This document shows positions 6,048 through 61,500 of a DNA stretch of 64,000 nucleotides, in pieces. The stretch is from Mesostigma viride. Taxonomy: Eukaryota; Streptophyta; Mesostigmatophyceae; Mesostigmatales; Mesostigmataceae. The notes under the pieces were generated by a model. The model was not told the DNA's origin, ran no database searches, and was given only the letters and a program-made list of their open reading frames with translations. Position numbers and translations under genes: made by a program. How positions within the stretch are numbered: the stretch's first letter is position 1; each line of letters opens with the position of its first letter. The DNA lies in assembly GCA_009746045.1 (NCBI GenBank), contig RPFO01001017.1, positions 1-64,000 on the forward strand, given 5' to 3'.

Positions 6048-9000
6048 ATGTATTCCGGATCGCTCAAGCGGGGCGCCACGCGCATCGCACAGTCGCTGAT
6101 CAGCAACCACCAGCGGCCGTTCACGTCGTCAGGCATCCCCTCGTCCTCCCACCAAGGGGGCCTCTCGCAGTGTCGCCAGCTGGCAAAGGGGCTCGCAGAG
6201 AACGGGACGGCTGCCAGCAAACAGGCCGGCAAGATGGCGCCGACAGCAGCGCCACCCACCACCGCGGGCGCGGTGCAGCAAGCCGCCCGGCGGGCGCCCC
6301 TCACACCGCTGGACGCCAACACCACGTGCCTCACGATGTCGGAACAAGACTTTCTGCTGGCGCCCGGGTCAGCGCGCGGACTATGCGGCGTCGCTGCCGC
6401 CGCGCCCGAGGCCGCCTCGCCACCGGCCCCCGCACAGAGCATCCCTGTGGACCTGCCCACCGACTACCAGCGGTTCATCCACCTGTCCAGGTGCGTGCGC
6501 CGCCTCCTTCCATGTGTTGCTCCTTTCTTCGCCACCTTTGATGCATTTGTATTTCGTTTCGCCAAACATGGGAGATGTGTGGGCAACATGATAGGGCGCT
6601 GCAACACCGCGGTTTCTGCATTCGCGTCTTCCATAGACTAAGGGGGTTGTTAATCCGCTTGCCCTTTGTCGTGCCCTTCTCGACCCTATCGCCCATCACC
6701 ATGCCTCATGGCATCCATCCATTGCGTTTGGCGCCAACTTGTCCTTCCCGCTCGCATCTCCTGCTCCCCTTGCTGCCCCTTCTTCTCCCCCTTGCGTCTA
6801 CCCCATGCCTCCCTACCCCAGGTACGCGCGGTGGGATTACCGCAAGCACCGCCGTGAGACGTGGGCGGAGACCGTGGAGCGCTACTTCCGCTTCTTCGAG
6901 GGCCACCTGGAGCGCATGTGTGGCTTTGAGCTGGACAAGCGCGTGCGGGCGCAGCTGGCGCACGCGGTCGGCACGCTGCAGGTCATGCCCTCCATGCGCG
7001 CGGTGATGACTGCGGGGCCTGCCCTGGAGAGGGAGAACGTGGCCGGGTGAGCCAGCGCACGGGTGGTAGTCGTTCGTGGTGACAGTTGTGGTGGTGGCTG
7101 CTGTCATTGTTTCCATGGTTGTGGTGGCGAATACTGGTGACAGTGGTGTGTGTGTGGGGGGGGGTTGGTGCAGGTGGTTGTTGTGGTTGTAGTGGTTGTT
7201 GTGGTTGTTGCGGTGGTTGCGGTGGTTGCGGTGGTTGCGGTGGTTGCGGTGGTTGCGGTGGTTGCGGTGGTTGCGGTGGTTGCGGTGGTTGCGGTGGTTG
7301 CGGTGGTTGCGGTGGTTGCGGTGGTTGCGGTGGTTGCGGTGGTTGCGGTGGTTGCGGTGGTTGCGGTGGTTGCGGTGGTTGCGGTGGTTGCGGTGGGGGG
7401 ATTGGGGGGTTGGGGGGGTTGGGGGGTTGGGGGGTTGGGGGGTTGGGGGTTTGGGGGGTTGGGGGGTTGGGGGGGGGGGTTGGGGGGTTGGGGGGTTGGG
7501 GGGTTGGGGTGGTTGGGCGGTTGGGCGGTTGGGGCGGTTGGGGCGGTTGGGGCGGTTGGGGCGGTTGGGGCGGTTGGGGCGGTTGGGGCGGTTGGGGCGG
7601 TTGGGGCGGTTGGGGCGGTTGGGGCGGTTGGGGCGGTTGGGGCGGTTGGGGCGGTTGGGGGGGTTGGGGCGGTTGGGGGGGTTGGGGGGGTGGCGGGGGG
7701 TGGCGGGGGTGGCGGGGGTGGCCGTGGTGGCGGGGGTGGCCGTGGTGGCCGTGGTGGCCGTGGTGGCCGTGGTGGCCGTGGTGGCCGTGGTGGCCGTGGT
7801 GGCCGTGGTGGCCCTGGTGGCCGTGGTGGCCCTGGTGGCCCTGGTGGCCCTGGTGGCCCTGGTGGCCCTGGTGGCCCTGGTGGCCCTGGTGGCCCTGGTG
7901 GCCCTGGTGGCCGTGGTGGCCCTGGTGGCCGTGGTGGCCGTGGTGGCCCTGGTGGCCGTGGTGGCCGTGGTGGCCGTGGTGGCCGTGGTGGCCGTGGTGG
8001 CCGTGGTGGCCGTGGTGGCCGTGGTGGCCGTGGTGGCCGTGGTGGCCGTGGTGGCCGTGGTGGCCGTGGTGGCCGTGGTGGCCGTGGTGGCCGTGGTGGC
8101 GGTGGTGGTGGTTGTTGTGGTTGTTGTGGTTGTTGTTGCAGTGGTGGTTTATGTGGGGTCTACATAGCAGAGGGAGAGCGTTGTGGGATGAGCCAGCATT
8201 GCCTTGTTCTGCCATCCTCCGCAGTCCCCCCCCCTCTCCCCTCCCTCCTTATCGCCATGTCCGCACCGTGACGACTTGGTTCGGTGCCTCCTCTTTCTCC
8301 CCATGCCACGCACGTGCAGCTACAACTGCGCCTACTGCCGCATCGACGGCGTCAGCCGCTTTGCCGAGGTGCTCTACATCCTCATGAACGGCACCGGTGT
8401 GGGCTACTCGGTGTGCCAGGACGCCATCTCCAAGCTCCCCCCTGTGCCCGCCTCCCTTGCCCATCCGCCCCTCGTGTCCGACCCCTCGTCCCCCGCCCCC
8501 GTCATCGTAGTGGAGGACAACAAGGAGGGCTGGTCTGAGGCCTTTGACCGCGTGGTCCGCACCCTGTTTGACGGCAAGGTCCCTGTGTGGGACATGTCGC
8601 ACGTGCGGCCCGCAGGCACGCCGCTGCGCACGTTCGGCGGGCGCGCGTCAGGGCCCGAGCCCCTCAACGAGCTGGTGAGCGTCAGGGCATGACCTTGATG
8701 TTTTTCACCATGTTCTCCTGATCCCTCACCCTAGTATCTGGCCCTAGCCCCCCTCAATGAGCTGATGGGCACCATGGCGTGGCCTACTTGCCCGGCTTAA
8801 TACTGGCCCTGTAGCTTACACTGTTGTCTGGCCATATTCCCCCCTTAACGAGCTGGTCAGCGTTGAGACTTGAACGTGATGGTCTTATTGCTCCACTTGC
8901 TGGCCCTATGGCTTGCCATATTGTCTGCCTTTATGACCAAGGATCTGGCACGCGCCAACCTCGTGGTGACCACCTCAAGGAGCGCCGACACGTGGGCAGT

Positions 9001-12000
9001 GGTACCCGCCCTAAGGCGCCTCTTACCCGCTGTTGTGACTCATCAGCCTCCTTTTAACACGCGCATCCCTGGCCCTAACACCCGTCCCCCCCCCCCCTAT
9101 TTCCCCCTACCCTACCCTAAACAGTTTGAGTTCACGGTACGCTCCTTCATCCGCGCGGCCGGCCGCCGCTTCACCAGCCTGGAGGTGCACGACATCATCT
9201 GCAAGGTGGCCGCGGTCATCGTGTCGGGTGGCGTGCGGCGGTCGGCGCTCATCTCGCTGTCGGACGTGGACGACCCGGACATGCGCGGGTGCAAGAGCGG
9301 CGCGTGGTGGGAGCACAGCCCCCACCGCGCGCTGGCCAACGTGTCGGCCATCTACAAGGGCAAGCCAAGCGCGCTCACGTTCATGCGCGAGTGGACCGCG
9401 CTCTGCGAGTCTGGTGAGGGCAAGATACCGTTGCTTACTAGTATGATATTGTATTGTAGTCATAGCACGCCTTAACAGGTGACGGCGGTGGCGTTGTTTC
9501 GTAGCATGCTCTATGGTAATCATTGCATGCGTCAACAGAGCGAGTCAGGTGTGCAGCATGGAGCATCATGCTTTTGCACACCAACCTCTGGGAGTCTGAC
9601 GGGGATGTAGACGTGCTCCTTCACATGTTGGTTGCGCTGGTAGTGTCAATCAGCGAGTCGGGTGGGAGGGGCCGGGCATCATAGCTGTGCCTCAGTGGGG
9701 GGCTGCACGGGGGGTGGGCACTGTCGTGGCATACTTGCACCAATGGGGCCAGGTGCCGGGCACGCTGGATGTTTCTGCGGACACACAGCCAGTCAATACG
9801 TGGGTCTTGTTGGTCACGTGTGGCTTGTGCTGTAGAGCCATGAAGCATCACTCATATTTTTAACTTGTTTTACCAGTCCTTAAACACACCCGTGTATCAA
9901 CCCTCTCCACTGTTGGTGGCCCCCCGCCACCACTACATCCACATTTATAACCACAACCGTCGCCACAACCATCGCCACCACAACCACGATCACAACAACC
10001 ACCACCACAACAACTACAATGACCATCCCCCCCCAGGCTCGGGCGAGCGCGGCATCTACAACACGGACGCGTGCCGCCGCATCTCCTCGCGCCACACGCA
10101 CGAGGACGGCACGCTGAGGCGGCAGCCGCGGGACGACTTCGGCACCAACCCGTGCTGCGAGGTCATCCTGCGCTCGTGCCAGTTCTGCAACCTGTCCGAG
10201 GTGAGCGGCCGAGTATCTACGTGTGGTGAGCGCCTGCCTGGGGTGGGGTGGGGGAAGGGGGGGCCTATGCGCCTGGGGGGGGGGTTGAAAGGGGCCACAA
10301 TGGTACTATTTGTTGGTGGGTCGCTTATTCATGGATTGCATCAGTGGCAATGCTAGGGGTGTAACGTAGGTATGACATCACCTTCCGGAGAGTGAGGCGA
10401 AGCAGCATGCCAAGGAACCCTTGCTCCTTGCTGCATGCCTGCCTGACCCACCAGGGCTGCCCCCTGCACCGTTGCCTGCCGCCCACCTCCCTGATACCCC
10501 TCCCCCCCAGGTGGTCATCCATCTAACTCATGGGCCTGCACGCAACATTTACCTGCTTCCCCTCTCCCCCATCCCTGTTGCCCCCCAGGTGGTCATCCGT
10601 GCTGATGACACGCGCGCATCGCTCGAGGCCAAGGTGCGCTCGGCCACCATCCTGGGCACGTGGCAGTCCACGCTCACCAAGTTTGGCCCGCGCCTGAGCC
10701 CCGAGTGGAAGAAGAACACGGTGGAGGAGCGGCTGCTGGGGGTGTCGCTGACGGGCATCATGGACAGCTCCCTGACCAACGGGACGGGGCCGGGGGGGCT
10801 GGACACGCTCGCGGAGCTGCTGCAGCACCTGCGCCAGGTGGCGTACGAGACCAACCTCGAGTGGTCGCGCAAGCTGGGCATCGAGCCCTCGGCCGCCATC
10901 ACTTGCATCAAGCCCAGCGGCACCGTCAGCCAGCTGTGCGACTGCTCCAGCGGCATCCACCCACGCCACTCCGCCTACTACATCCGCACCGTGCGCATGG
11001 ACAAGAACGTGAGTCTCCTGTATTTGCGCTTCTAGGGGCATATGTATAGATTGGCTTGCTGTGCATGATCTGTGGGAATGGACAAGATTGTGGGTGTCAC
11101 TGTCCTTAAGACCTTTACTAATCAGTCTGAGAATGTGTGGGCGGGTGGCACATGTAAGATATCCTTACGCAAATGTTGCACTGGATTACTGTCTGACTTG
11201 AGCAGAAGAACAAGCACCTTGTTCACAGCTAACGTAGATCCCCACCTGTCCTCCCCGTCCCCTCTCCCATATATCCCCCCCCACCCTCCACACTCCTTTC
11301 TGCCAAACCAAATTCTGGCCTCCCCCCCGCAGGACCCCCTGTGCCGCTTCATGCAGGAGCGCGGGTACCCCCACGAGGCGGACGCGATGAACCCCCTCCG
11401 CTCCGTCGTCTTCTCCTTCCCGGTGGCCGCGCCGGCCTCCTCTGTCTTCCGCAAGGACCAGAATGCGCTGCAGATGCTGGAGCTGTGGCGGCTGTACCAG
11501 ACGCACTGGTGCGAGCACAAGCCCAGCGTGACCGTGTCGGTGCGGGAGAGTGAGTGGATGGCCGTCGGCGCGTGGGTGTACGACCACTTTGATGAAGCCA
11601 GCGGCATCGCCTTCCTGCCCTACTCGGACCACGTGTACAAGCAGGTGAGCCTCGTTGTACCCCACCTGCGTAACGAATGCTTAATCAATTAATTGCATGT
11701 GACTGCTTGCTTCTGGCGGTGCTCCAGGAATTCCATCGGTAGTCTCTTGGTCTGTCCTGCACAGTCACTAACACATACTGTATTGAGACAGGCATCACGG
11801 CTTCCTTTATAAGAAAGCCCTGTTCAGCGCAGCCCTTAGCACGCATTGCCTGCTGGTCGTACTCCTTGCTACCCTTGCCTGTGTCCTTGCGTGACCCTTT
11901 GTGCTGGTTTCGGTTGCCTGTGTGCTGGTCCCCATATCCCTGGTTTCCGGTTTCTCCCGCAGGCGCCCTACCAGGAGGTTGGCGTGGAGGAGTACGAGGC

Positions 12001-12118
12001 GCTGCGTGCACGTATGCCCTCGACCGTGCAGTGGGAGGAGCTGGGCGAGTTTGAGAAGACGGACAACACCAATGTGACCTCGGAGTTTGCGTGCACGGGC
12101 ATAAACTGTGAGGCCTAG
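6048..12118 (+). CDS. RTPR: Adenosylcobalamin-dependent ribonucleoside-triphosphate reductase (class II RNR), eight exons
   Basis: Eight exons join in phase with GT–AG introns: 6048–6490, 6822–7046, 8320–8674, 9125–9413, 10037–10200, 10589–11008, 11333–11644, 11963–12118 (2364 nt, 787 residues). The enzyme reduces ribonucleoside triphosphates to deoxyribonucleotides using a B12-generated thiyl radical. Visible hallmarks are YARW near the start of the catalytic part, the partner cysteine in GYNC (C226), and TNPCCE with the thiyl cysteine C477 and E479. C488 follows 11 residues later, the spacing known from the Lactobacillus enzyme, and IKPSGTVSQL is the KPSGT motif. A C-terminal pair C780/C785 has the CX4C spacing used for re-reduction. 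The first ~35 residues (MYSGSLKRGATRIAQS...) are basic, Ser-rich and lack acids, so an organelle transit peptide is possible. The frame stays open upstream to 5868 but has no ATG. Introns contain decoy copies of exon edges. Class II RNR is rare in eukaryotes; Euglena is the known example. Confidence 0.92.
7196..8105 (+). repeat. Nonamer minisatellite in RTPR intron 2
   Basis: About 0.9 kb of 9-bp units fills the second RTPR intron. It has three blocks: GGTTGCGGT units (7207–7393), GGTTGGGGN and GGTTGGGGC units (7394–7690), and GGTGGCCGT/GGTGGCCCT units (7700–8100). All are open in several frames on both strands and give meaningless peptides (PWW, HGH, GRG repeats). The unit length being a multiple of three explains the long open frames. 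The T- and G-rich strand may form G-quadruplexes. Confidence 0.95.
8662..8885 (+). repeat. Degenerate tandem copies of the RTPR exon 3 donor boundary
   Basis: The exon 3 end and donor (CCTCAACGAGCTG|GTGAGCG, donor at 8675) reappear in the following intron at about 8752–8770 (CCTCAATGAGCTGATGGG) and 8843–8862 (CCTTAACGAGCTGGTCAG). The period is about 90 bp. Flanking words such as TGACCTTGATG and TGAACGTGATG are also shared, so a block spanning the splice site was duplicated. Confidence 0.75.
10502..10605 (+). repeat. Duplicated acceptor boundary upstream of RTPR exon 6
   Basis: CCCCCCAGGTGGTCATCC occurs at the true acceptor (exon start 10589) and 78 bp upstream (10503–10520). The upstream copy diverges after GGTCATCCAT and would not preserve the protein, so it is a decoy acceptor. 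Confidence 0.7.
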
Positions 12119-12794
12119 AGCGAGCCAGTTTACAAAGCAGAGGGCATGGGGCACTCGGATGACTCCTTGCCAAAACTGCTGTGGCGTCAAACTGCTGATC
12201 GGCTACAATTTTGTTGACCCGTCCGGTCCACGCGTGGCGGTATTCCGCCTTCCCGCCACGAGTGTTTAGTGCGGTGTACATCTCCAGTATTTTTACCTTC
12301 AAAAATTGGGACAACCAATGTTGCCTTACTTTATGTCCACGTTTCTCATGGCGTTTCTGTATAGCTTAGGTGAGAACAGTGTAGAAGCAGCAGTCCATTC
12401 GAGGTAAACTTCAGGGGACCCTATGGCACTCTCCGCTTCTAGGGAGTGCATGCTGATGCAAGTGTTATTACTTTTTCCTGCTCATGGGTTTTACAAGGGC
12501 GATTGGGAATGGCCCAGTGCCGATCTAATAGGCAATAGAACCCAGATGGGCATTGCGGGCAGATCTGTAATCTTTTACTGGCTGCTTTTATTTATCTTCT
12601 TCTCTTTTTTTTTTTTAATGAAAATGCTTTCCTGTTGTTGACTTGGAGTAAAGCCGCCCCGTCGGAGTATCCTAGGCGTTGTCTCCGCCCAAGCTTGTCC
12701 CTCAAAGAGCAGCGTGGGCACGGGTGCAGGTGGGTGGGTGGGAGCTGCAAAAAGGCCTCCTTACATCCACATCATCATTCATTCATCATTCATG
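12119..12794. other. RTPR downstream region, no gene seen
   Basis: Probable 3' UTR and intergenic DNA. A T-rich stretch lies at 12588–12618. No conserved coding sequence is recognised before the CATT microsatellite. Confidence 0.5.
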
Positions 12795-12931
12795 CATTCA
12801 TTCATTCATTCATTCATTCATTCATTCATTCATTCATTCATTCATTCATTCATTCATTCATTCATTCATTCATTCATTCATTCATTCATTCATTCATTCA
12901 TTCATTCATTCATTCATTCATTCATTCATTC
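12795..12931. repeat. (ATTC)n microsatellite
   Basis: About 34 near-perfect tetranucleotide units lie directly against the LINE ORF1 fragment that follows. Confidence 0.97.
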
Positions 12932-13085
12932 ACAACGACGACGGGAGCTATGGCCGACCTACCTCCAGCTCCGGCAGACGGCGGGGCAGAAGCCGGTCTA
13001 CTGGAAGGGGGCGGACATCTACGTCGCCCACAAGCCCTGGCAGGCGACCCCTGCCGCCCCAGCCACCCCAACCACCCCAGCCTAG
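12932..13085 (+). pseudogene. LINE ORF1 3'-end fragment
   Basis: The segment reads [14 protein letters not shown], then KPVYWKGADIYV and an Ala/Pro/Thr tail ending at TAG 13083–13085. The same C-terminus recurs at 17610, 19144 (minus), 28630 and 30740, so this is a truncated copy of a non-LTR element ORF1. The motif resembles the end of L1-type ORF1 proteins (RRM-like domain followed by RR.ELWP). Confidence 0.8.
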
Positions 13086-14398
13086 GGAATGTAGCAGTAG
13101 TGTAGACTAGAAAGCTTAGCTATGTGGCCATGTATGCCTACGTGATGGGCCCACACCAGCCCTTGCAACAGCCGTAGCAATTTCGAGTCATGCTTTGCCC
13201 ATGCAGGGAGTTACTCTCTGCTGAGAGGCCATGTGTACACCAGCTATAGCCTAGCCACATACCTTCCACCCCATATGTCATGCAGGCCTTCTAGGCCCTC
13301 TCCTCAAGCCGCCTTGTGTGCTTGTGCTTGTTTAGGAGGCATGAACCATCATGGTGGTGCAGGTGCACCTTGTGCACCCAGAGCAGGTGATAGTTGTCCA
13401 TCCTCCACCTGCAGGTTGTCGCCCTGATTGTACTACAAACCCACAGATGCCCCTTTCTCAGGGCTATGTGCATGTTACATGCATATGCCCCCCACGGAGC
13501 TATGATTTTCATTCATTCATTCATTCATTCATTCATTCATTCATTCATTCATTCATTCATTCATTCATTCATTCATTCATTCATTCATTCATTCATTCAT
13601 TCATTCATTCATTCATTCATTCATTCATTCATTCATTCATTCATTCATTCATTCATTCATTCATTCATTCATTCATTCATTCATTCATTCATTCATAACA
13701 TATCTCCATGGGGAGCATGTGTAACACCTATCCCTGAGAGGGGGCTTATGGTTTTTTATACATTCTGGGCTACAACCTGCAGGTGGGGGATGTAAACTGC
13801 CACCTAGTACTCTGCCAGGTGCACATGCAAGGTGCACCTCCACCACCACGATGTATCAAACGTAAATTAAGGCCTGGCATGGGGACCCATGCCAGGGACC
13901 CATGGATGTTGCATTAAGAATTTAGCCATGCTATGCCATGCAGAGAGATGCTCTCTGTCGAGAAGCCATGCCCTAGCTCTTGTATAGCCATGATGATCTT
14001 CCCCCACATGACATACTCCCCCTTAGCTGGGCATAGTGTGAAGATCATGAGGGTGCCGGTGCCCTTGAGGCACCTAGAGCAAGTGCTGCTTACATTCCAC
14101 TCTTGCAGGAAGTAGCCTAGAATGTATTAAAAGCCATATGCCCCTTCTCAGGGATATGTGCTACATTGACTCCCAACGGAGTGATGTTGATAATTAATTA
14201 ATTAATTAATGGGGACGTACGTGTAATACATAGTGGTGCAGGTGCACTTCGTGCACCCAGAGCTGGTGTAGTTTACACCAGGCTACCCTTGCAGGAAGTA
14301 GCCCATTAATTAATTAATTAAGAACATAGCTCCGTGGGGAGCATATGTAACACATAGCCCTGAGAAAGGGGCATCTATGGGTTTGTCCCCCTCAAGCT
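13086..14398. mobile_element. LINE 3'-UTR and tail modules with microsatellite junctions
   Basis: Non-coding modules repeated elsewhere in the window: CAGGGAGTTACTCTCTGCTG, a block containing TACATTC..CTTGCAGGAAGTAGC, and a terminal block ending CTCCCNACGGAG(C/T)(T/G)ATG. The terminal block abuts (CATT)n at 13507–13696 and (TTAA)n at 14192–14210 and 14308–14322. On the far side of the (CATT)n tract the block recurs in reverse complement, so two tails face each other across the microsatellite. Confidence 0.7.
13507..13696. repeat. (CATT)n microsatellite between opposed LINE tails
   Basis: About 47 tetranucleotide units form the tract. Left flank: the LINE terminal block reading ...CCACGGAGCTATGATTTT. 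Right flank: the inverted block reading CATATCTCCATGGGGAGC. Confidence 0.97.
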
Positions 14399-15436: not shown

Positions 15437-15467
15437 GAGCCACGAGCCACGAGGTAGCCATGGCTGT

Positions 15468-20472: not shown

Positions 20473-20777
20473 AATATATATCTTGACCTGGAGGGCCAGC
20501 GGGCCCCATGGTCGGCGCGGACCTGGACGTCATATTGGCGTCAGCGCTTGTCGGTGGCGCTGACTCGGGCCATGGCTGACATCATGCTCCGCCGTACGCG
20601 GGCTGATTTTGCGGTGCAGCAGGGCTATTAGGTTCCTCCCGTTAGGCGTTTCCATTGGTCTTATCGTAGTATAGAGCTTTGACATGGCTCTGTATATAGG
20701 TTTATAGCTGGGCGTTTGCTTTGGTTTGAGTGATTTCACTCTGCTGTAAGTAATTATATTTTTAATATATATCTTGA
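20473..20777 (+). mobile_element. 5'-truncated LINE C copy with 14-bp target-site duplication
   Basis: AATATATATCTTGA occurs exactly at 20473–20486 and 20764–20777. Between them 277 bp encode the last ~48 residues of a LINE C protein (LDLEGQRAPWSARTWTSYWR to FAVQQGY, stop at 20629–20631) plus its 3'-UTR. The same unit occurs on the opposite strand at 53.3–54.2 kb. The duplication identifies a genuine target-primed insertion. Confidence 0.85.
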
Positions 20778-32494: not shown

Positions 32495-47085
<14,591 letters not shown>

Positions 47086-48144: not shown

Positions 48145-49836
48145 ATGGGCCTATGCTGCAGCATCGTCCAGCAAGGCAACCTGGGCGTGGTCACCCGCTG
48201 CGGCCGCTTCTCGCGCACAATCGGCCCAGGCCTGCACCCGACCTGCATCTGCCTGGGCGACGTGCTCGCCGGCACGCTCAACCTGCGCATCTGCGACAGC
48301 ACGTTCCACGGCTCCTTTAAGACCCTCGACAACGTGTTTGTGGCGGTGACCCTGTCCGTCCAGTACCACGTCCAGCAGGAGGGCGCGTACCAGGCCTTCT
48401 TCCGCCTGGCCTGCCCCGAGGAACAGATGCACGCTTTAATCCGCGACGCGATGCGTTCCGCGGTCGCCAGGCTAACGCTGGATGAGCTCTTTTCGGCCAA
48501 GGACTCGTTGGCACGCCAGGTGGCATCCTCAGTGGCCACCCCCCTGGACGTGTACGGCTACACCATGGACAAGCTGCTAATTTTAGAGATCGAGCCGCCG
48601 CCCGGCGTGCGCGACGCCATGAACGAGATCCAGCGGTGTGCGCGCCTGGCAAGTGTGGCCAGGGAGCAGGCAGAGGCCGAGCGGCTGACAGCTGTCAAGG
48701 CGGCGGAGGGCTGCTGTGAGAGCATGGCGCTCAACGGCCGGGGCACCGCGCGGCGCCAAGTGGCGGTCACGCAGGGCTTGTGCCTGGCGGCGCGCAACCT
48801 GCTCAAGCACGTGGAGGGGGTGACGTTTGACAGCGCGGCCGCCACGCTCATGCTGGGGTACCACTGCGATGTGCTGGCGGCGATCAGCCACCGCCAGGAC
48901 AATACGGATGGGCATGGCGCCGCGAGCGAGGGAGGGGGGGGGCGGGACCGACCCGAAACAGGGGCAGCCATGGCCGAGGCGGGAGGGATTATAATGGGAG
49001 GGGGGGGGGCGGGGGGAGGACTGTATTGGGGTGCGGAAGGGATGGTGGCGTCGACTGGGGCTGGGCTAACGCACGGCACTATCATCGGCGGCATGGGGCA
49101 CCACCCAGGGTCGGGGGCGGCGGGCGGTGGGCAGCTGTGGAGAATGCAGGGGGGCTCACAATGGCCAGCGGATGGGCTCCACCGGAGTGGTGGTGGTGGT
49201 GGTGGTGGTGGTGGTGGTGGTGGTGGTGGTGGTGGTGGTGGTGCGGCGGCGGCCAGTCCCCACCCGCCAGGTGGCAGGTCCACATTGCTTGTCCCCTTTG
49301 GCGCGTCACCCGTGCCGTCGATGATGGAGCAATACCGGCGCACGGCACTCGAGTTCCGCACCACGCGCGAGCTGTCCCTGCGCCACGCCACGCACTGCCA
49401 GCTGGAGGCATTGCGCGTGCCGTCCACCAAGAGCAGGAAGGCGCCGCAAGAAGGAAGGAAGCCCTCAGCGCGACAGGGAGCATCCCTGGGGGGTTCCGGC
49501 ACACTCTCATCGGAGCGTGCATCCGTGCCGTTACTGCCGTCAGCATCAGGGGCTGTCTCTGCGCCCTTGCTACCATCCTCCTCCACCCACCCATCCACCA
49601 GCCCATCCTTCCCTGCAGCCTTTGGCCCCCGGCCACCCTCCTTCGGGGCGCACCCTGTGGCAGCACCCCTGCAGCATGGCTCAACTATGGCGTCGCCGGG
49701 TGCGGTCGCGATGGCTCGTCCTTTATCGGGTGGGGGTGCTGCAGTCGCGCGTCCTGGGCAGGGTGGTGCGTGGGACCCGAGGGCGCTCTCCAGGGTGCAC
49801 CCGGACCGCAACGTGGACCTGGACGCCGTCGTGTGA
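48145..49836 (+). CDS. HIR: HIR-type SPFH/Band 7 membrane scaffold protein, intronless, 563 residues
   Basis: A single uninterrupted frame from ATG 48145 to TGA 49834–49836. The N-terminus MGLCCS offers Gly2 for myristoylation and Cys4/Cys5 for palmitoylation, as in plant hypersensitive-induced reaction proteins. Residues ~5–185 match the SPFH domain: GLHPTCICLGDVLAGTLNLR, TLDNVFVAVTLSVQYHVQ, LDELFSAKDSLARQV, VYGYTMDKLLILEIEPPPGV, MNEIQRCARL and a coiled-coil helix AREQAEAERLTAVKAAEG. The family forms oligomers in plasma-membrane microdomains. Residues ~250–563 are an unusual low-complexity extension rich in Gly, Ser and Pro, including an in-frame (GGT)n tract (~49188–49242) coding about 18 glycines. 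Typical HIR proteins are ~285 residues, so the extension doubles the length. It is divergent from the DnaJ gene. Confidence 0.9.
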   Translation: MGLCCSIVQQGNLGVVTRCGRFSRTIGPGLHPTCICLGDVLAGTLNLRICDSTFHGSFKTLDNVFVAVTLSVQYHVQQEGAYQAFFRLACPEEQMHALIRDAMRSAVARLTLDELFSAKDSLARQVASSVATPLDVYGYTMDKLLILEIEPPPGVRDAMNEIQRCARLASVAREQAEAERLTAVKAAEGCCESMALNGRGTARRQVAVTQGLCLAARNLLKHVEGVTFDSAAATLMLGYHCDVLAAISHRQDNTDGHGAASEGGGGRDRPETGAAMAEAGGIIMGGGGAGGGLYWGAEGMVASTGAGLTHGTIIGGMGHHPGSGAAGGGQLWRMQGGSQWPADGLHRSGGGGGGGGGGGGGGGGGGAAAASPHPPGGRSTLLVPFGASPVPSMMEQYRRTALEFRTTRELSLRHATHCQLEALRVPSTKSRKAPQEGRKPSARQGASLGGSGTLSSERASVPLLPSASGAVSAPLLPSSSTHPSTSPSFPAAFGPRPPSFGAHPVAAPLQHGSTMASPGAVAMARPLSGGGAAVARPGQGGAWDPRALSRVHPDRNVDLDAVV

Positions 49837-50000
49837 CGGGTGGTTGGAGGCGTGGTGAGAGAGGAGTATTGAGCAGTGGTGGGAATAGGGCGCCGTTGTT
49901 TGAGGCAACGCCGTCGTGTGAGGGGGCAAATGTAGGCGTCGTGCGAGGGTGAGTTAGACGTGTCAGGGGTGGACCTGGACGCCGCCCTGTTAGAGGTGGG
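49800..50000 (+). repeat. Degenerate copies of the HIR 3' coding end
   Basis: GTGGACCTGGACGCCGTCGT with the stop (49813–49836) recurs as AACGCCGTCGTGTGAGGG at about 49908 and GTGGACCTGGACGCCGCCCT at about 49970. The copies lie downstream of the real stop. Confidence 0.75.
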
Positions 50001-50439
50001 ATGGAGGAGTGCAAGAAATCATGGTGCGTGAATGCTGGCAGCCGTTGTGTGCGCATGCTGGCAGCCGCCCCGTGGGACGTGGCAGATGCGGGTGTGTGAG
50101 GGGGCGTGGTGGCAGATGGCAGCCGCCTGCTACTGAGACCTCTGCTGTGAGAATGCATGTGGATGGATGCATCGCGCGCCACGCATCCGGAGCACGGCGC
50201 GTTGCTGCCGCACCCACGAAGACCTTCAGGGCGGCTGCAGGGCGTGCGGGTGCCAGCAGCCACAGGCATTGTAGGGCTCTGCTGGGGTCTGCGTGCCGGT
50301 CGTTCAGGCCAAAATGGAGACGCCCGAATAAGGTCACCCGAGTAACGCCCAAACATGGACCACCGAATGGGGACGCCATTGGACTTGATGAATCGGGCTC
50401 TTGGGCCGTGCTTCGACGGTGGGCGCGTGGCGTTCTCAT

Positions 50440-50850: not shown

Positions 50851-50879
50851 AGCAATGACAGCGTTGCAACGTATCATTT

Positions 50880-52110: not shown

Positions 52111-52129
52111 CCGCCCTGCATAATAAATA

Positions 52130-52400
52130 TATATTCATTGAGAATGATAAATTACGGAGGTGAGATTGGCATGCAACACAAGGAAAACCCCGAAAAGAAG
52201 AAGAACCCTGAAGAAATTAATAGTCATCTGACACGGACATCCAAGGACATCCTAACATATATTCGTTAAGAATGATAGATTACGGTGGTGAGATTGGCAT
52301 GCAACCTAAGGAAAACCCCGAAAAGAAGAAGAACCCTGAAGAAATAGTAATCTGACACGGACATCCAAGGATCACGCCAGCTGCACAAGGTACAACTAAC
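52130..52400. repeat. Direct duplication of ~105 bp
   Basis: GAATGATAAATTACGGAGGT through ACACGGACATCCAAGGA (52140–52246) is repeated at 52268–52370 with few changes (GAATGATAGATTACGGTGGT). Probably a duplicated 3'-UTR of the flanking LINE relic. Confidence 0.75.
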
Positions 52401-52439
52401 TACATCACAAAACTACGACACGCAGCAACATCGCTGCCG

Positions 52440-53274
52440 GCCCACCAATGATGCAGGCCTGGGAGGGATCTAGACTGCATGGGTCGCGACAAAGTCGGCC
52501 CGGGTGCGGCGGAATAACACATCAGCCACGGTGTGAGTGAGGGCGAGTGACAGGCGCTGCCGCCAATACGAGGACCACGTGCGGGCAGACCACGGGGCGG
52601 TCTGACCCTCGAGGTCGAGGCGGTCTTCACGGCGCTGGCAGCACTCGTGGAAAAACTCCGCTGTCTTTGGGCCCATGGCCCCGAACTCCTCAAGGACAAA
52701 GGGGATGACCCGGTGGGGCCCCACATTGCCGTAGGAGGCAAACTTGTCGCGCTCAGCCACAGCGGCAGCAGCGCGCCGGCATCCACAGCCGCCCGGAGGA
52801 TGTGGCGACCGGAGAGCGGCCGAGCCACGGAGACATCGATGAGCAGGTGGCAACCCTGCCCGTCGTAGTCAAGCACGGTAATGTCGGGGCGGTGGGTGGG
52901 TGAGTAGAGGGCGGCCCCATCCATGTCCTCGCACTTGATGGTGGAGTGGGGAAAGACCGACCGAACAATGGCACACACCACCCGGAGGAGAGCGGTATGG
53001 AGATAGAGGAACCAGTTCTGGTTCTGCTGGCCACCCATGCACGCGATGCAGTGCGTCCCTGTAGTATCGAGAGCAAGCCCGCAGCTGCCGCGGGACGCAC
53101 CTGCCGTGATGAGAGGCCGGGTTGCGGGGCAAACAGCTGGTGGCGGAGAGCGATGGCGTACAGGGCCGGCACCAGCGTGAACAGAGGGCTCATGGGGAGG
53201 GCGCGCAGGAATGCGGACCCCACGCTCCCCTCAAGGGAAACTGAGTGAAACCAAGCCTTCCCCTGATCGTTCAA
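52440..53274 (-). pseudogene. LINE C C-terminal fragment, longer divergent copy
   Basis: The minus strand holds FLRALPMSPLFTLVPALYAI and YAIALRHQLFAPQPGLSS, then DMDGAALYSPTHRPDITVLD, GCHLLIDVSVARPLSG and a decayed end RRTRADFVATHAV. Frames shift at least twice. It extends further 5' than other copies and differs in sequence from them. Confidence 0.75.
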
Positions 53275-53277
53275 GCT

Positions 53278-54258
53278 CGCACCCTAATATATATTTTAAA
53301 AATATAATTACTTACAGCAGAGTGAAACCACTCAAACCAAAGCAAACGCCCAGCTATAAACCTATATACAGAGCCATGTCAAAGCTCTATACTACGATAA
53401 GACCAATGGAAACTCCTACCGGGAGGAACCTAATAGCCCTGCTGCAACGCAAAATCAGCCCGCGTACGGCGGAGCATGATGTCAGCCATGGCCCGAGTCA
53501 GCGCCACCCTAATATATATTAAAAATATAATTACTTACAGCAGAGTGAAATCACTCAAACCAAAGCAAACGCCCAGCTATAAACCTATATACAGAGCCAT
53601 GTCAAAGCTCTATACTACGATAAGACCAATGGAAACGCCTAACGGGAGGAACCTAATAGCCCTGCTGCACCGCAAAATCAGCCCGCGTACGGCGGAGCAT
53701 GATGTCAGCCATGGCCCGAGTCAGCGCCACCGACAAGCGCTGACGCCAATATGACGTCCAGGTCCGCGCCGACCATGGGGCCCGCTGGCCCTCCAGGTCC
53801 AGCCGGTCCTCCCGGAGCCGGCAACACTCCTTGAAGAAGGCGGAGGTCAGGGGCCCCATGGCCCCAAACTCCTCCAGGACAAAGGGCACCACACGATGGT
53901 GCCCGACGTCGCCGTAGGCCAGGAGCTTGGCCCGCTCCGCCCGGTCCGCCGTGTAACCTGCCGTGAGGGAGGCCCCAGCCACGTGGCTAAGAGCCAAGGG
54001 CCGCGCCACCGAAACGTCAATAAGCAGATGCCGGCCACCCCCCTCAAAGTCCAGCACCACGATGTCAGGCCGGTGGTTGGGGGAATATATACTACTAATA
54101 TATATTAAAAATATAATTACTTACAGCAGAGTGAAATCACTCAAACCAAAGCAAACGCCCAGCTATAAACCTATATACAGAGCCATGTCAAAGCTCTATA
54201 CTACGATAAGACCAATGGAAACGCCTAACGGGAGGAACCTAATAGCCCTGCAATGAAT
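53278..54258 (-). mobile_element. Three nested 5'-truncated LINE C copies
   Basis: The 3' end of LINE C (AAATATAATTACTTACAGCA, then AAAGCAAACGCCCAGCTATA) occurs at 53284, 53515 and 54098, all on the minus strand. The middle copy is the longest and encodes an intact 135-residue C-terminal frame (53653–54060: LDFEGGGRHLLIDVSVARPL, RVVPFVLEEFGAMGPLTS, stop near 53653). The outer copies are ~150–230 bp. AT-rich flanks repeat: CACCCTAATATATATT at 53278 and 53506, and GAATATATACTACTA-like words on both sides of the 54.1-kb copy, consistent with target-site duplications. Confidence 0.82.
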
Positions 54259-54700
54259 ATATATACTACTATATCGTGATAATGTTTAGCGTACAGGGCC
54301 ACACATTTCCATATCCATCCATTTATCTCGACGTCGATCCTGAGTTATTGCATGCATGCAAATTGAATTTAGGAGGCCAAGGCTAAGTTTTTCTGATTTC
54401 TAGGTTAAAATTCATGCATGAAGTGGTGGCAGTGATTACCGACAAGTCTTCGATCGCTCTATATTCACCGGTTTGAGTACGTCACTCTCCTAAATAATAT
54501 GACCGACCGCGTGAGTGTCAAGCATGCAAAAACTATCCCACATGCTAGCTGCACATGTATCAACGAGACGAACAGAGAAGGCCTAAATTAATCTGGATCA
54601 AGGTAGATGGCCCACATAAGCTCAATATCATCTGTGCACATTGTGGGGAGTGATCCTGTCTGTCTCCCTGAGCGCGCTCTGCACAAACTTTCGCACATCA
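54259..54700. other. No gene recognised
   Basis: AT-rich unique sequence between LINE C and the TAG microsatellite. Confidence 0.4.
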
Positions 54701-54701
54701 C

Positions 54702-54861
<160 letters not shown>

Positions 54862-55522
54862 AGTGGTAGTACCTAGCATGTATATATGAGACAACACCCT
54901 TGCGCATGCGAGTAACATGGACTGCCCTAATTGAACTGACATGTATTAACCACTTTCTTGCCAGGCTCAAATGATTGCCAGGCCGGGTGCCAGCTGGCCG
55001 GAGGGCACGTCAAGTACATGGTCCTAGATCCTCCTCGTTGAGGGCAGATTGCTATGATACATGCATACAGGATACGTCCTGGTGGTTGTGGGTGAAGTGT
55101 GAACCCTGGGTATGAGCCCCTAAAGTTCTCCCCTGGCCTTACCCTTCAGGCCGGTCCGGGATAGGCAGGCCTAGTTATATTCTCCCGCACCGGTGCCTCT
55201 CAATGAGTACCCACATGACGCAGTCATGTGCTTTCATGTCCTGATGGCCAAAACGCTACCGGCCTTGGCTTCCCGCCTCTACTCAAACTAGAATACAAGT
55301 CGGTGAGGTAGCTCTAGAACAGAGGGAAGCGCTTGATGATGACAGATCTAGGATACGGGTCCTCCCGATGTCAAGCCTCTGCTTATTCATGTCAATTGAT
55401 AGCATGGTCACTATCTATGCTATATAGTAATGTTGGTTGTCTCATTGATACCGGCGACCGCCCAAAGTTTGCAAGCAATGACTAGATGATCACATGCATG
55501 CAGCAAGAAGGATCATAATTGA
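54862..55522. other. No gene recognised
   Basis: Unique sequence downstream of the EFCAB9-like gene. It presumably includes its 3' UTR. Confidence 0.4.
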
Positions 55523-58500
55523 TCACCCGAAAATGGCCTTGGTCGCTTTCCCCCACGTGGAGGTGAGGTGGCCCACCATGGCCGCCGTCGCCGTGCTTCC
55601 TGCAACACCCACATGGGTGGCAGCAGCGATATTAACATACAAGACGTAGAAAGCCGTGTTATGATCCGTCGGTAGAGAACCGTTGAGTATCATGCACATG
55701 AAAGAATAGATTTCGAAATGGGTGGCTCCCACTATCCCTTTGGTTGATTGTGTTTCGACATGCACACAGCAGGAGGGACAGGATATACAGCCACATGGTC
55801 ACTGATGCCATATATATACTGATATGCTATAGGCGCATGGTGCTTCATTCAAGAGGCGGCTAGCTTCATGCTGGTAATGGGTACAGTACAGCATTCTCAT
55901 GCCACAGGCTAGTGCTGTGCTGCATCTCTAACAAAAGCATAGCAACAAAGCCACATACTGGCATGTGAAGCAGCTATCACTGTTTCCAGCTAAGTTACCA
56001 ATATTAGACGAGAGCTAATGAATTGTTGTTCACGCTTGGCTTCATGACGCCAAAAGGGTGCGGCTAGACTTGTTGAAATGGCAGGACATTGCAAATAGGA
56101 GTAGCCAGGCAGAGATGGCCACCGCTCGTACTTCCGTAGACATTCCATAATATCCTATGCACTGTAGTGCCATCCTATACACTGTAGTGCCATCCTATAC
56201 ACTGTAGTGCCATCCTATACACTGTAGTGCCATCCTATACACTGTAGTGCCATCCTATACACTGTAGTGCCATCCTATACACTGTAGTGCCATCCTATAC
56301 ACTGTAGTGCCATCCTATACACTGTAGTGCCATCCTATACACTGTAGTGGCATCCTATACACTGTAGTGCCATCCTATACACTGTAGTGTCATCCTCCCT
56401 GGATACATAGGGGTGGCAAGTGTGGGCTACTTCCTGCACTTTTCGAGGGCAGCTGTAATTGGGCGACAAGCGTGTGGGCATCTCTCCTCTAGAAGCACGA
56501 GGATGGATGATTGGGAAGGGCGACAAGCGTGTGGGCATCTCTCCTCTAGAAGCACGAGGATGGATGATTGGGAAGGGAGACAAGCGCGTGGGCATCTCTC
56601 CTCTAGAAGCACGAGGATGGATGATTGGGAAGGGCGACAAGCGTGTGGGCATCTCTCCTCTAGAAGCACAACCCTGATGTCCAGATGAATCTTGTTAATT
56701 GATATATCAGGGCTCCCCTTGTTGCCATCCCTGGCATGTGCCACCCCACGTGTTAGTTGGGATACTTCCAACAGAAGTGTCTTGATTACAATCTTCAGCC
56801 CAGGTCGCTCTTAGAGCGTTGTGGAGGCTATCACACCTGTAATTTTAACCACGTCAAGTACCACAGGCCAGGCCACTCACTGCGCTTCTTGGTCGCTGTC
56901 GCTTGCTGCTGCGCCTCTAGGCATGCGAGTGTGAACATGCGAAATTCTTCATAGTCCAGCTCCTGCACCATGCAGCCATGCATGCATGGGGGCCAGAGAT
57001 AATCAACGCCGGCCACGTTACTGCAGAGGTGGTGAACTGCCTCCCGCATGCGCAAGCATGGCAATGTCACAGGCATGACGCACCACAAAATGATAAACCA
57101 TAATTATGGAAACTACATCCAACATGTGGCAGGGAGGTAGGGCAAGATGGAAGGGGGGGAGGTTGTCGTAGGGGAGGTGAAAGCAGGCGCCTTGAAGCAC
57201 GCACGGCATCCTCATCGCCCGGCCATGGATGCCATGCAACATGCTGAAGCCCATGCGTACGGATGACAGCAGATACATCAGCAGAGAGCAGCGCAAGCAG
57301 TTCAACAGCTTGGTGATTTGGCCACAGAGGGGACGGGGGGCAGCATGCCATTTATCGGAGAGCAGGATGAAGGAGCATATCCGAGGAGCACAATGAAGGC
57401 ATGTGTGTGGAATTGTGAGGTGACATTGTCACAAGTGCCGGGTCAAGGTTGTGCGGTATCTATTGTGCGAAATCTATTCTGGGAAGGTGAAGCGAAGCCA
57501 GGTGGCCGCACGCAGAGCTCCTGTGGAAGCATGGCAGCGCAACGCGCAATCTTTTTTATTTCACTGTGGGTCTTTGCGAAAGAGTGACTGGATGCCCTAG
57601 GCAAGGGTGGAGGCTCACCGCTAAGGGGCAACTCCCAGCACCAAAGGAGGCCTCCACTAGAACTGCTACGGCACGCGGTGGGTATCCCACGGCATGTAGT
57701 GGGGTACTGCCATGGGAGGAGACATGCACTGCTAAGAGGAAGTAAAGAGACTGAATTGAACATGTACGTTTCAAGGCGAAAATCGATAGTAAGGCCCCAA
57801 CATGCCCCCCAGGGGTACCGCCCGCGCGCACCTGGCTGCCGTCGATGTCGAACTGCTTGAAAATCTTGCGCGCGCTATCCATGGAGATGTTGAAGACAAA
57901 GCCAAACCGCTCAAACTCCTGCACTTGGCGTGTCCAGACGCGCCAGCATGGCATGGCAGGGGGAGTCACCGAGCGGGAACAGGAACAAACAAAACCAGAA
58001 AAGAAGGGGTAAAAAAAGATTGGGAACGCCTGGTAGAACCCCCTCCGTGCGCCAAGAAGTGCAGTGGAGTACAATGGGGTGAGCGTGTTCAACATGCATG
58101 GACAACAGCTACAAGGCTGGCACGACATCAAAGCGCACACTAGCAGTTGCAGCCACGCCCTCAGCCAATGAATGCTGTTACAACGGGTTGCGCCTGCTGT
58201 AGTGCTACTATTAGTGTCAGATAACTTGGAATTGGCGCACACGGTTGGCGCTTATTAAACAGGGATTCACCCTCGAAAGACTCCTCACATGAGCTAGCGG
58301 TTACTCTTACGCGCTAGCGCTGGCTAATCACCCTCCTCAACCATGCAACCATACTGCTACCCTGAGGCCAACTCAGGTATCATGTTTTCCCGCTTTCGGC
58401 ATCAGATCCGCAAACACGCAAATGCCAGCCATGCGTCCGCTCCGTGTAACAAGCTGCCATCCACCGGCACCAGAGGCGGCGACCCGAGGGACGGCATGTA

Positions 58501-61500
58501 GATGTTCTCCCCTGCTGCCACCTGGCGCATGTGGGGCCAGCGACCGACCGCGTTTACAAGGGACCGCCACGCCCTACCTGCTCCCACCAGCGGTGATATG
58601 TTCATGGCCCCACCAGTACCCGGCGAGTGGAGCTATTTTTAGCGCCGCAGCCGCCCACCTGCAGCGTGATGGTGCCGCCCCCGTCCTCGTCCAGCAGCGC
58701 AAAGCACGTGCGCGAGTGGATGCTCAGGAAGACCCGCTCGTTGTGGTGCTGGCAGAGGGCACAAGGGTGAGGGGCGGAGGGCCGAGGCAACATGAGGGCA
58801 AGGGCCGAGGGCGCACCATGGTGACGATAGCCAGCAAGGGCAGAAGGCAGAGGGATCATGAGGGCGAGGGCAGAGGGGGCGTGGGGGCGTAATTTCAGCA
58901 TTGGGACCATCGGGAGAGATCGAGTCCATACAGGACAACATCATCCGGGGGGGGGCAGCCTTGGCGAATCCGTAGGATGAGAACACACCGGGCGTGCCAC
59001 CGCCCGGTGTGAGCAAGGTAAGGGTCGTTCCAGGCCAAGCCATCCAGGCAAGCATCTCAAAAATCCACGAGCACTTACTGTTACCCATTTTGTTCTAATT
59101 ATTGTGAATCACAGACGCATAAGCAGTATGACTACAGGGCTAGCCATCCAGGCAAGCGTCATTAACATCTACAACTATCTAGTATTACTCAAGTTATTCG
59201 AACAATGAGCAATTATGAACATGAGGAGTATAAATATGTCGTGTCATAGTAGGCGAAGAAGCATAGGGCTAGCATCGTACCGTCCTCCAAAGATATGTCT
59301 CACTAACTGCACATGACACTGCCCCTGGCCGCCTTGTCCTTATGATAGTAATAACGATAATAAAATGGCGATTGACAATCACAATACCCAATGAACAAGA
59401 TGTTAGCCTCCCCTGAGCCCACTGAAAGATCATGGAAAGCAGGCAGGCAACGCTTTCAAGCCCTGAAGCAACCGCTGAGATGAAGTGTGGGGCAGTGGGC
59501 TATGCGCACAATGGGACCCTGTGGGCAGCAGAGTATTCTTCAGCTAGCCCTATACTTGCCAGCCGGCAATCCTACCTTGACGGCCACACACATGCACACG
59601 AGCAGGTAGCACGCATCACCACGGCGGCTTGCTGGCGGACTCACCTTGACGGCCACACACATGCACACGAGCAGGCAGCACGCATCACCACGGCGGCTTG
59701 CTGGCGGACTCACCTTGACGGCCACACACATGCACACGAGCAGGCAGCACGCATCACCACGGCGGCTTGCTGGCGGACTCACCTTGACGGCCACACACAT
59801 GCACACGAGCAGGCAGCACGCATCACCACGGCGGCTTGCTGGCGGACTCACCTTGACGGCCACACACATGCACACGAGCAGGCAGCACGCATCACCACGG
59901 CGGCTTGCTGGCGGACTCACCTTGACAGCCACACACATGCACACGAGCAGGCAGCACGCATCACCACGGCGGCTTGCTGGCGGACTCACCTTGACGGCCA
60001 CACACATGCACACGAGCAGGTAGCACGCATCACCATGGCGGCTTGCTGGCGGACCCACCTTGACGGCCACACACATGCACACGAGCAGGTAGCACGCATC
60101 ACCACGGCGGCTTGCTGGCGGACTCACCTTGACGGCCACACACATGCACGCGAGCAGGTAGCACGCATCACCATGGCGGCTTGCTGGCGGACCCACCTTG
60201 ACGGCCACACACATGCACACGAGCAGGCAGCACGCATCACCACGGCGGCTTGCTGGCGGACCCACCTTGACGGCCACACACATGCACACGAGCAGGCAGC
60301 ACGCATCACCATGGCGGCTTGCTGGCGGACCCACCTTGACGGCCACACACATGCACACGAGCAGGCAGCACGCATCACCATGGCGGCTTGCTGGCGGACT
60401 CACCTTGACGGCCACACACATGCACACGAGCAGGCAGCACGCATCACCACGGCGGCTTGCTGGCGGACCCACCTTGACGGCCACACACATGCACACGAGC
60501 AGGCAGCACGCATCACCACGGCGGCTTGCTGGCGGACTCACCTTGACGGCCACACACATGCACACGAGCAGGTAGCACGCATCACCATGGCGGCTTGCTG
60601 GCGGACTCACCTTGACGGCCACACACATGCACACGAGCAGGCAGCACGCATCACCACGGCGGCTTGCTGGCGGACCCACCTTGACGGCCACACACATGCA
60701 CACGAGCAGGCAGCACGCATCACCACGGCGGCTTGCTGGCGGACCCACCTTGATGGCCACTAGCATGCACACGAGCAGGTAGAATTCGTCGAAGTCGATG
60801 AAACCATTGCCGTCCACGTCGAACATCTCAAACACGTGGTTGATCTTGGCTTCGGACAGGTCGGTCGCGCAGCACATGAACGACCTGATGATGCCATGGA
60901 AACAGGACAGTCGAGTAGGGGAGAATTTGTCAGGTATGGAAGCATTGGTAACAGGTCCGTCGCTCACCACATGACCTGGCATAGTGAGGTACGGGGTGGA
61001 TAATAATTGAATAGGAAACAGCCGTCAAACAGGGGCTAAAGGGGATGACAGGTCGGCGGCGCAAAGCATGACCGACCTGATGGCGTCATGTTACAAACAG
61101 CCACAGTATAGGCAGCAACAGTCCATGTGTTTCTGGTGCTACGCGTCAGTCGTGCCCCGCACTAAGCATAGAAGCATAGTGAGGTAGCATGGGGGAGCGG
61201 GTGCTAGTCAAAGGAGCGGTTGGGCCCGATCCTGGACACCACGATTCCAAAGGAGCGGTCGGCATTCCCTGTGGGTGCTAGGGACAGGTGCGTTAGTCAC
61301 GCAACGCGTGAAGGACCCGACGATCGAATGGGACAGATGACAATCCCAAGGGTGGGTGTGATACCATGGGACATACAAAAATCAGATAGAATGATGGCTA
61401 GGAATGCATAGCTCTATCTGCATTCCTAACAGGTTGGTTGATAGACACCAAACGAGAGGTAGAGCAGTTATGCTAGAGGATCGCGGTAACGTCAGCTAGC

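What the first reader, a model, noticed from the sequence alone, without database searches (positions are those of the whole stretch)
8662..61092. Recurrent tandem duplication of exon–intron boundaries: a candidate mode of intron growth
Independent genes show the same thing. RTPR exon 3 donor has two decayed copies about 90 bp apart (8752, 8843); RTPR exon 6 acceptor has one copy 78 bp upstream (10503). DnaJ exon 4 has copies on both sides, exon 5 donor has three copies, and exon 9 donor has a long series. EFCAB9 exon 2 has a copy at its acceptor and 17 at its donor. The 3' end of HIR coding sequence is also copied downstream. In each case the copied block spans the boundary, so decoy splice sites are created and then decay. 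I know of no described mechanism that explains this genome-wide; replication slippage or repair at exon edges is possible.
Basis: partly seen in the sequence, partly recalled or inferred. Interest (0 to 1): 0.85.

Follow-up and report, generated by a model that had tools for sequence, protein, structure and literature searches.

The report
Exon-edge tandem copies inside algal introns
Many introns of this algal genome carry old and young tandem copies of the neighbouring exon edge; they look like the by-product of ordinary local DNA duplication that splicing tolerates at the start of an intron and seldom at its end.

Summary
Ten of 27 window junctions have a copy that none of 200 shuffles reaches. 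It extends beyond the window: in 92 dynein and kinesin introns of the same genome, 16 donors and 6 acceptors have a copy in their own intron; exon-interior anchors of the dynein set gave 1 of 320. The copies are tandem units, mostly 40-170 bp.

Local repeats cover introns (6.5%) and flanks (5.8%) alike, exons 0.3%. Merged into families, donor crossings exceed uniform placement (13 against 5.4). When exons are masked, so that exon conservation cannot help detection, boundary crossings match expectation (7 against 7.8). The polarity stays: 7 donor, 0 acceptor. This fits a splicing filter: a spare donor downstream is tolerated, a spare acceptor upstream is met first. A donor hotspot is not excluded. 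Tandem duplication across intron boundaries, and repeats crowding intron ends in green algae, are published.

The parts
8320..8674 (+). RTPR (B12-dependent ribonucleotide reductase) exon 3, source of the copied donor edge
   Evidence: Spliced product matches PDB 1l1l, E=1.7e-40; donor after 8674
8742..8784 (+). First downstream copy of the RTPR exon 3 donor edge; approximate limits
   Evidence: Score 33, junction positions -23..+20; window coordinates placed by eye on the sequence
8841..8863 (+). Second copy of the RTPR exon 3 donor edge
   Evidence: Score 36, shuffle maximum 24, p=0.005
10503..10520 (+). Copy of the RTPR exon 6 acceptor edge, 78 bp upstream, intact AG, in frame, open insert
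   Evidence: 18/18 identity, score 36, p=0.005; 78 bp, AG kept, open
11072..11103 (+). Weak copy of the RTPR exon 6 donor edge
   Evidence: Score 26, shuffle maximum 25
42119..42191 (-). DnaJ exon x4 with copied edges on both sides
   Evidence: DnaJ domain of the gene PF00226
42042..42066 (-). Copy of the DnaJ x4 donor edge (period 70 bp)
   Evidence: Score 45, p=0.005; unit alignment
42251..42278 (-). Copy of the DnaJ x4 acceptor edge (69 bp upstream in the gene)
   Evidence: Score 31, p=0.005; AG kept
40805..40842 (-). Copy 1 of the DnaJ x5 donor edge
   Evidence: Score 61, p=0.005
40731..40754 (-). Copy 2 of the DnaJ x5 donor edge
   Evidence: Score 30
60749..60885 (-).
   Evidence: EF-hand match just under the Pfam cut-off, 24.9 against 25.4 bits; boundaries
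59574..60748 (-). Donor-derived array: 17 copies of a 69-bp unit (34 nt of exon end plus intron start); stays open in the exon's frame
   Evidence: TRF; 17 junction-matching copies; stop-to-stop ORF 59540-61024 of 494 aa
61047..61090 (-). Copy of the EF exon 2 acceptor edge, 192 bp upstream in the gene
   Evidence: Score 43, p=0.005; distance
49908..49999 (+). Stretch holding two copies of the 3' end of the SPFH/Band_7 ('HIR') coding sequence, which ends at 49836
   Evidence: Scores 31 and 37, 0 of 300 shuffles reach 37; Band_7 E=2.8e-26
39168..39683 (-).
   Evidence: TRF; no junction match, p=0.51

Best explanation
Non-coding DNA of this genome is subject to frequent local tandem duplication: blocks of mostly 40-170 bp, sometimes amplified into minisatellites. 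A block that straddles an exon-intron edge puts a copy of the exon end and its splice site into the intron, which grows by one period while the protein stays unchanged if the outer, original site is still used. The duplication is not aimed at splice sites. Selection then sorts the results. Exon-interior duplications are removed. Donor copies lie downstream of the real donor and are mostly tolerated. Acceptor copies lie upstream of the real acceptor, would be met first by the spliceosome, and are mostly removed. Shown here: tandem structure that includes both sides of the junction, equal repeat coverage of introns and flanks, near absence in exons, donor-acceptor asymmetry, boundary total equal to expectation once exons are masked. 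Inferred: that the asymmetry is a splicing filter, which site is used, and that the DNA event is slippage or repair of staggered breaks.
For: Twelve of the 16 unit alignments run from exon (8 nt or more) through the donor into intron (13 nt or more). Local repeats cover 6.5% of 42,967 bp of intron, 5.8% of 98,000 bp of flank, 0.34% of 51,715 bp of exon; shuffles 0.0%, 0.12%, 0.0%. With exons masked during detection: 30 families, 7 donor-crossing, 0 acceptor-crossing, 23 internal; uniform placement expects 3.9, 3.9 and 22.2; boundary total p=0.84, acceptor deficit p=0.027. Internal families within 100 bp of an end do not favour donors (7 against 10; Fisher against 13:2 p=0.012), so the event itself does not look 5'-biased. 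The same kind of copy occurs at a stop codon. Five of 7 acceptor copies lie a multiple of 3 nt away, 7 of 20 donor copies (EF gene included; difference p=0.19, weak). [quoted passage not shown]
Against: Unmasked donor crossings exceed uniform placement: 13 against 5.4, p=0.0015; with gapped crossings added 15 against 5.5, p=0.0001, and then the boundary total is also in excess, 18 against 11.0, p=0.019; among high-identity families 8 against 3.7, p=0.019. Masking removes most but perhaps not all of this (donors 7 against 3.9, p=0.10). Family starts in masked introns pile up in the first 20 bp (9 of 30, donor-crossing ones included). Repeat coverage is about 11-13% from -20 to +160 around donors but 1-4% at 120-220 bp upstream of acceptors. 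No RNA data. Small counts, uncorrected p-values, my own gene models. One of 104 introns holds a copy of the joined exon sequence, which simple boundary-straddling duplication does not explain. Five of the 7 acceptor copies have a stop in the insert today, so the multiple-of-3 hint may be chance.
Confidence: 0.65

Rival explanations
1. The 5' splice-site region is a mutational hotspot for tandem duplication (for example through R-loops, nicks or stalled forks at the start of introns), so intron growth is actively seeded at donors.
For: Donor-crossing families 13 against 5.4 expected, p=0.0015; 15 against 5.5 with gapped crossings, p=0.0001; 8 against 3.7 in the high-identity class, p=0.019. Crossing donors 12 of 92 against interior 30 of 506, p=0.024. 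Repeat coverage about 12% over the first 160 bp. Two dynein paralogues carry different donor arrays that copy the same exon end.
Against: With exons masked: donors 7 against 3.9, p=0.10, boundary total 7 against 7.8. Internal families are not nearer to donors than to acceptors (7 against 10). Dynein set alone: 9 of 80 against 26 of 447, p=0.086, bootstrap of the difference -0.02 to 0.13. The gapped additions were sought at boundaries only, which favours boundaries.
Confidence: 0.2
2. The copies are functional: alternative in-frame donors or acceptors, or repeats that are in fact coding, kept because they vary the protein.
For: The EF exon 2 array (17 x 69 bp) is open in the exon's frame across all copies. 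The RTPR exon 6 acceptor copy is intact, 78 bp, in frame and open. 17 of 19 donor copies keep a GT.
Against: Only 7 of 20 donor periods are multiples of three, and 12 of the 19 donor events have a stop in the insert. One open 69-bp unit makes a near-identical array open by itself. Most pairs are diverged (70-90% identity).
Confidence: 0.07
3. RNA-mediated copying: reverse splicing or reverse-transcribed message re-entering the gene.
For: One of 104 introns searched (dynein C1945, intron 13802-14016) contains a 47-nt copy that matches the upstream exon end joined to the downstream exon start (score 44).
Against: The other 103 introns show no such join at the threshold used, and boundary copies include intron sequence. 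The single case has another reading: two paralogues are uninterrupted at that site, so the copy may descend from an exon that was duplicated before the intron arose.
Confidence: 0.03
4. Chance, low complexity or wrong gene models produce the matches.
For: Some hits are weak or G/C-rich (DnaJ x3 donor); two donor hits were flagged low-complexity. The splice matrices were trained partly on the window's own junctions, so the model check is not independent.
Against: One shuffle per junction gave none at scores of 24 or more in the dynein and window junction sets. The ab initio run recovers all 14 RTPR splice boundaries and 9 of the 10 of the five DnaJ introns, though it adds false small exons.
Confidence: 0.04

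Closest known systems
Tandem genomic duplication across an intron-exon boundary (potato RdRp gene, PMC4974935)
   Same: Direct tandem duplication of a block that crosses an intron-exon boundary and duplicates splicing signals; that paper also mentions an 83-bp tandem duplication inside an intron
   Different: There the acceptor-side duplication created a new intron and changed the transcript; here existing introns seem only to lengthen, and mostly at the donor side
Intron gain by exonic AGGT duplication (Rogers model; reviewed in PMC3443670; Drosophila cases in PMC2891723)
   Same: Local tandem duplication of exon sequence bearing splice motifs
   Different: In that model a new intron arises inside an exon; here no new intron is shown, though the C1945 dynein intron could be one
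Tandem repeats concentrated near intron-exon junctions in Chlamydomonas and Volvox (PMC3887541)
   Same: Intronic tandem repeats crowd intron ends in green algae
   Different: That survey used units of 1-50 bp, and the passages I read do not report exon-derived units or a donor-acceptor asymmetry
Short tandem duplications from staggered break repair in rice (Vaughn and Bennetzen 2014, seen only as cited in PMC7407515)
   Same: Insertions of 10-1000 bp that commonly form tandem duplications, a candidate DNA mechanism
   Different: Not tied to splice sites; breakpoints could not be resolved here

Membership tests
Tandem genomic duplication (intron-gain model) | Direct, abutting duplicate of a contiguous genomic block | tested here: met
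   Sixteen unit alignments: gaps between copies 0-31 bp in 13, and 50, 58 and 100 bp in three; TRF
Tandem genomic duplication (intron-gain model) | Creates a new intron between duplicated splice motifs | tested here: inconclusive
   In the modelled cases the copies lie inside one existing intron; no RNA or outgroup data. One dynein intron, absent from two paralogues, holds a joined exon copy and may be a gain
Minisatellite | Tandem units of about 10-100 bp | tested here: met
   69-bp EF array; median repeat shift in introns 94 bp, 10th-90th percentile 36-305, so some units are longer
Minisatellite | Copy number varies between alleles | not testable with these tools
   The EF locus was found only once in the assembly
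Introner elements | Similar introns dispersed over many loci | tested here: not met
   Search of the EF exon 2 region in the whole genome found only local copies; one locus tested
Intron-end repeats of green algae (PMC3887541) | Repeat density higher near both intron ends than in the middle | tested here: inconclusive
   Donor end clearly higher, acceptor end modestly (profile); 92 introns only
Intron-end repeats of green algae (PMC3887541) | Host is a green alga | tested here: inconclusive
   33 chlorophyll a/b-binding matches and 44 dynein AAA_6 matches: a photosynthetic flagellate by inference; lineage not established

The most novel reading that the evidence does not exclude
In this lineage introns lengthen mainly from their 5' end: each donor-straddling duplication leaves a spare, often intact donor downstream, the first-transcribed donor keeps being used, and the mirror event at acceptors is purged. 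Intron growth would thus be a one-way ratchet imposed by the order in which the spliceosome meets its sites, perhaps helped by a real duplication hotspot at 5' splice sites, and leaving a readable record of exon edges in about one intron in seven.
Probability: 0.33. Interest if true: 0.65.

Novelty: new variant of a known kind. Interest (0 to 1): 0.45.

Why it matters
Copies with a known, conserved source (the exon edge) act as markers of intron growth, so the rate and polarity of growth can be measured within one genome. The donor-acceptor asymmetry gives a simple genome-wide test of which duplicated splice sites a spliceosome tolerates. It also warns annotators: many intact decoy donors can sit next to a real one (17 at one exon here).

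Tried and rejected
A boundary-specific mechanism as the sole explanation was set aside after the masked control, but a donor hotspot stays open. My first family count (40 families, 13 donor, 2 acceptor, 25 internal; 6.3, 6.3, 27.4 expected) split single arrays into several families. It was redone with merging (37 families), which raised the donor excess, and then with masking; the confidence of the best explanation was lowered and that of the hotspot raised accordingly. RNA-mediated copying as the general cause was rejected: 1 joined copy in 104 introns. A first unit alignment overlapped its own source and gave meaningless 100% identities; redone (the crossing counts and bootstrap are used). 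A first ab initio filter lost genes through a stop-codon score; redone. The window background mixed large microsatellite arrays with everything else and is not used as a control. Copy-number variation of the EF array between haplotypes was sought; only one locus was found. Exons under 50 bp or with low coding score were dropped before counting introns; low-complexity alignments were dropped before counting hits. Donor hits that did not cross the junction (4 of 13 in the dynein set) count in 'any', not in 'crossing'. Exon-interior controls were run for the dynein and window sets, not for the kinesins. Host identity beyond 'photosynthetic flagellate' was not resolved.

Literature: nine paper searches ran, each showing a capped list. 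In what was listed I saw no title or abstract reporting exon-edge-derived intronic repeats with donor polarity.
Full report
What was checked.

Window result. Of 27 junctions, ten have a copy that none of 200 shuffles reaches; two of the ten are weak and one lies 1.1 kb away. The HIR example is real (0 of 300 shuffles) but lies at a stop codon.

Is it general? I took 270 kb from other places of the same 440-Mb genome: dynein heavy chain genes (anchored by PF12774; loci) and kinesin genes (PF00225; loci). Exons were defined by similarity between paralogues and by an ab initio model. In one search that model recovered all 14 RTPR splice boundaries and 9 of 10 of the five DnaJ introns, but added false small exons; its splice matrices were trained partly on those junctions. 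This gave 80 dynein introns (median 491 bp) and 12 kinesin introns, not chosen for repeats.

Anchor test. Sixty-nucleotide queries at donors, acceptors and control positions were searched in up to 400 bp of the same intron. In 92 introns 16 donors and 6 acceptors hit at score 27 or more while beating 100 shuffles; intron-interior anchors gave 35 of 506 and 39 of 506. Exon-interior anchors of the dynein set gave 1 of 160 and 0 of 160 at score 27. Restricted to alignments that cross the anchor: donors 12 of 92, acceptors 3 of 92, interior 30 of 506 and 28 of 506. Donor against interior p=0.024, donor against acceptor p=0.028, uncorrected. In the dynein set alone donor against interior is 9 of 80 against 26 of 447, p=0.086. 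Fourteen of 92 introns have a crossing copy at one end or the other.

Family test. Repeats were merged so that one array counts once (replacing). Thirty-seven families: 13 cross a donor, 2 an acceptor, 22 are internal; placing each family uniformly over the introns would give 5.4, 5.4 and 26.2 (donor p=0.0015, boundary total p=0.15, donor against acceptor p=0.0074). If gapped crossings are added, which were sought at boundaries only, the counts are 15, 3 and 20 and the boundary total is in excess too (18 against 11.0, p=0.019). In the high-identity class: 8, 1 and 10, donors 3.7 expected, p=0.019.

Masked control. A copy that contains exon sequence stays recognisable longer because the exon half does not change. 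I therefore masked the exons during detection and asked afterwards which families cross: 30 families, 7 donor, 0 acceptor, 23 internal, against 3.9, 3.9 and 22.2 expected. The boundary total (7 against 7.8) shows no excess, donors are not significantly high (p=0.10), acceptors are low (p=0.027). Internal families within 100 bp of an intron end do not favour donors (7 against 10). I read this as a symmetrical event with an asymmetrical filter; a moderate hotspot at donors remains possible.

Background. Local repeats cover 6.5% of intron, 5.8% of flanking and 0.34% of exon sequence, against 0.0-0.12% in shuffles. Introns behave like other non-coding DNA of this genome, and exons are protected.

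Anatomy. Sixteen donor events were aligned unit against unit: periods 40 to 181 bp (some are multiples of a shorter unit), 70-90% identical except the EF array (first two units 100%). In 12 of the 16 the aligned block runs from exon through the donor into intron; in the other four it is shown in another phase or reaches only 0-2 nt to one side. At 17 of 19 donor events the copy keeps a GT within 3 nt of the aligned place, and 9 of these score as high as the real donor or higher by my position matrix. All seven acceptor copies listed keep AG, and five of the seven lie a multiple of three away (p=0.045), but this does not differ significantly from donors (7 of 20; Fisher p=0.19). Two cases are notable: the RTPR exon 6 copy is an intact acceptor 78 bp upstream with an open in-frame insert, and the EF array is open in the exon's frame through all copies. 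For these two, use in the mature message cannot be excluded.

An exception. A search for copies of the joined exons (upstream end plus downstream start) inside introns found one in 104 introns: dynein C1945, intron 13802-14016, score 44. Two paralogues are uninterrupted at this place, and the exon reads AAG|GTG across the junction. Either a duplicated, once uninterrupted exon became partly intron here, as in the Rogers model, or a spliced copy was inserted. One case does not decide.

How it most likely works. Frequent local tandem duplication supplies blocks everywhere. Blocks wholly in exons are removed. Blocks across a donor leave the original donor first in the transcript; the copy is inside the intron and harmless. 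Blocks across an acceptor place a new acceptor upstream; since the AG is found by scanning from the branch point (passages of PMC10946897), it would often be used and alter the protein. That last step is inferred.

What is known. Potato: abstract and results section of PMC4974935 read. Review of intron gain: passages of PMC3443670. Drosophila: passages of PMC2891723. Green algae: passages of PMC3887541: repeats of unit 1-50 bp are denser near intron-exon junctions, especially in Chlamydomonas and Volvox. Break-repair origin of short tandem duplications in rice: as cited in PMC7407515 (passages). Gao and Lynch 2009, Hellsten 2011 and Rogers 1989 are known to me through those papers and from recall. 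What I did not see reported in the listings of my nine searches are exon-edge-derived units and the donor-acceptor asymmetry.

Limits. No RNA data; small numbers; uncorrected p-values; own gene models; one genome. The model could mistake a copy for the real site, which would move some events to the 'exon' class (one such family).

Noticed in passing
L020 5985-6198, - strand (G000 C1945 dynein intron 13802-14016): This 214-bp intron holds a 47-nt copy of the joined exon sequence on either side of it, and two paralogues have no intron there: a possible intron gain by duplication, or a spliced copy.
   Followed up: partly
window 33337-36667: An apparent piggyBac-type transposon (DDE_Tnp_1_7, E=1.3e-45) with an open 685-aa frame, TTAA at both ends and inverted 11-nt ends, inserted into and splitting a 32-bp minisatellite.
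   Followed up: partly
window 6048-12118: A B12-dependent type ribonucleotide reductase gene with seven spliceosomal introns in what seems a photosynthetic flagellate genome.
   Followed up: partly
window 59540-61024, - strand: The 17-copy 69-bp donor array keeps the exon's reading frame open throughout, so it could be read as coding repeats of 23 residues.
   Followed up: partly
L010 (C1679) and L020 (C1945): Two dynein heavy chain paralogues carry different tandem arrays at a donor with the same exon end, encoding WIENMNT.
   Followed up: partly
G000: C1909:46412, C458:134894, C2022:737504: Some dynein heavy chain genes have single open frames of about 2000-2440 codons, while others are cut into small exons: very uneven intron density within one family.
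   Followed up: no
window 6-1448: A 1.4-kb array of CCCCCGA-type units at the very start of the window, which is also the contig start.
   Followed up: no
window 42751-42779: Four ACCCTAA units (plant-type telomere motif, recalled) inside a DnaJ intron.
   Followed up: no
window 53280-53731: A 223-bp unit duplicated in tandem (97% matches); by eye, related copies lie near 54100-54250 and, inverted, near 20640-20770.
   Followed up: no
G000: C2:6330541-6334132 and C622:17695-21288: Kinesin matches with nearly identical spacing and scores on two contigs suggest retained haplotypes, useful for allele comparisons of repeat copy number.
   Followed up: no
L030 (G000 C1324): 4618 of 10000 bases are N, probably withheld or masked.
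   Followed up: no
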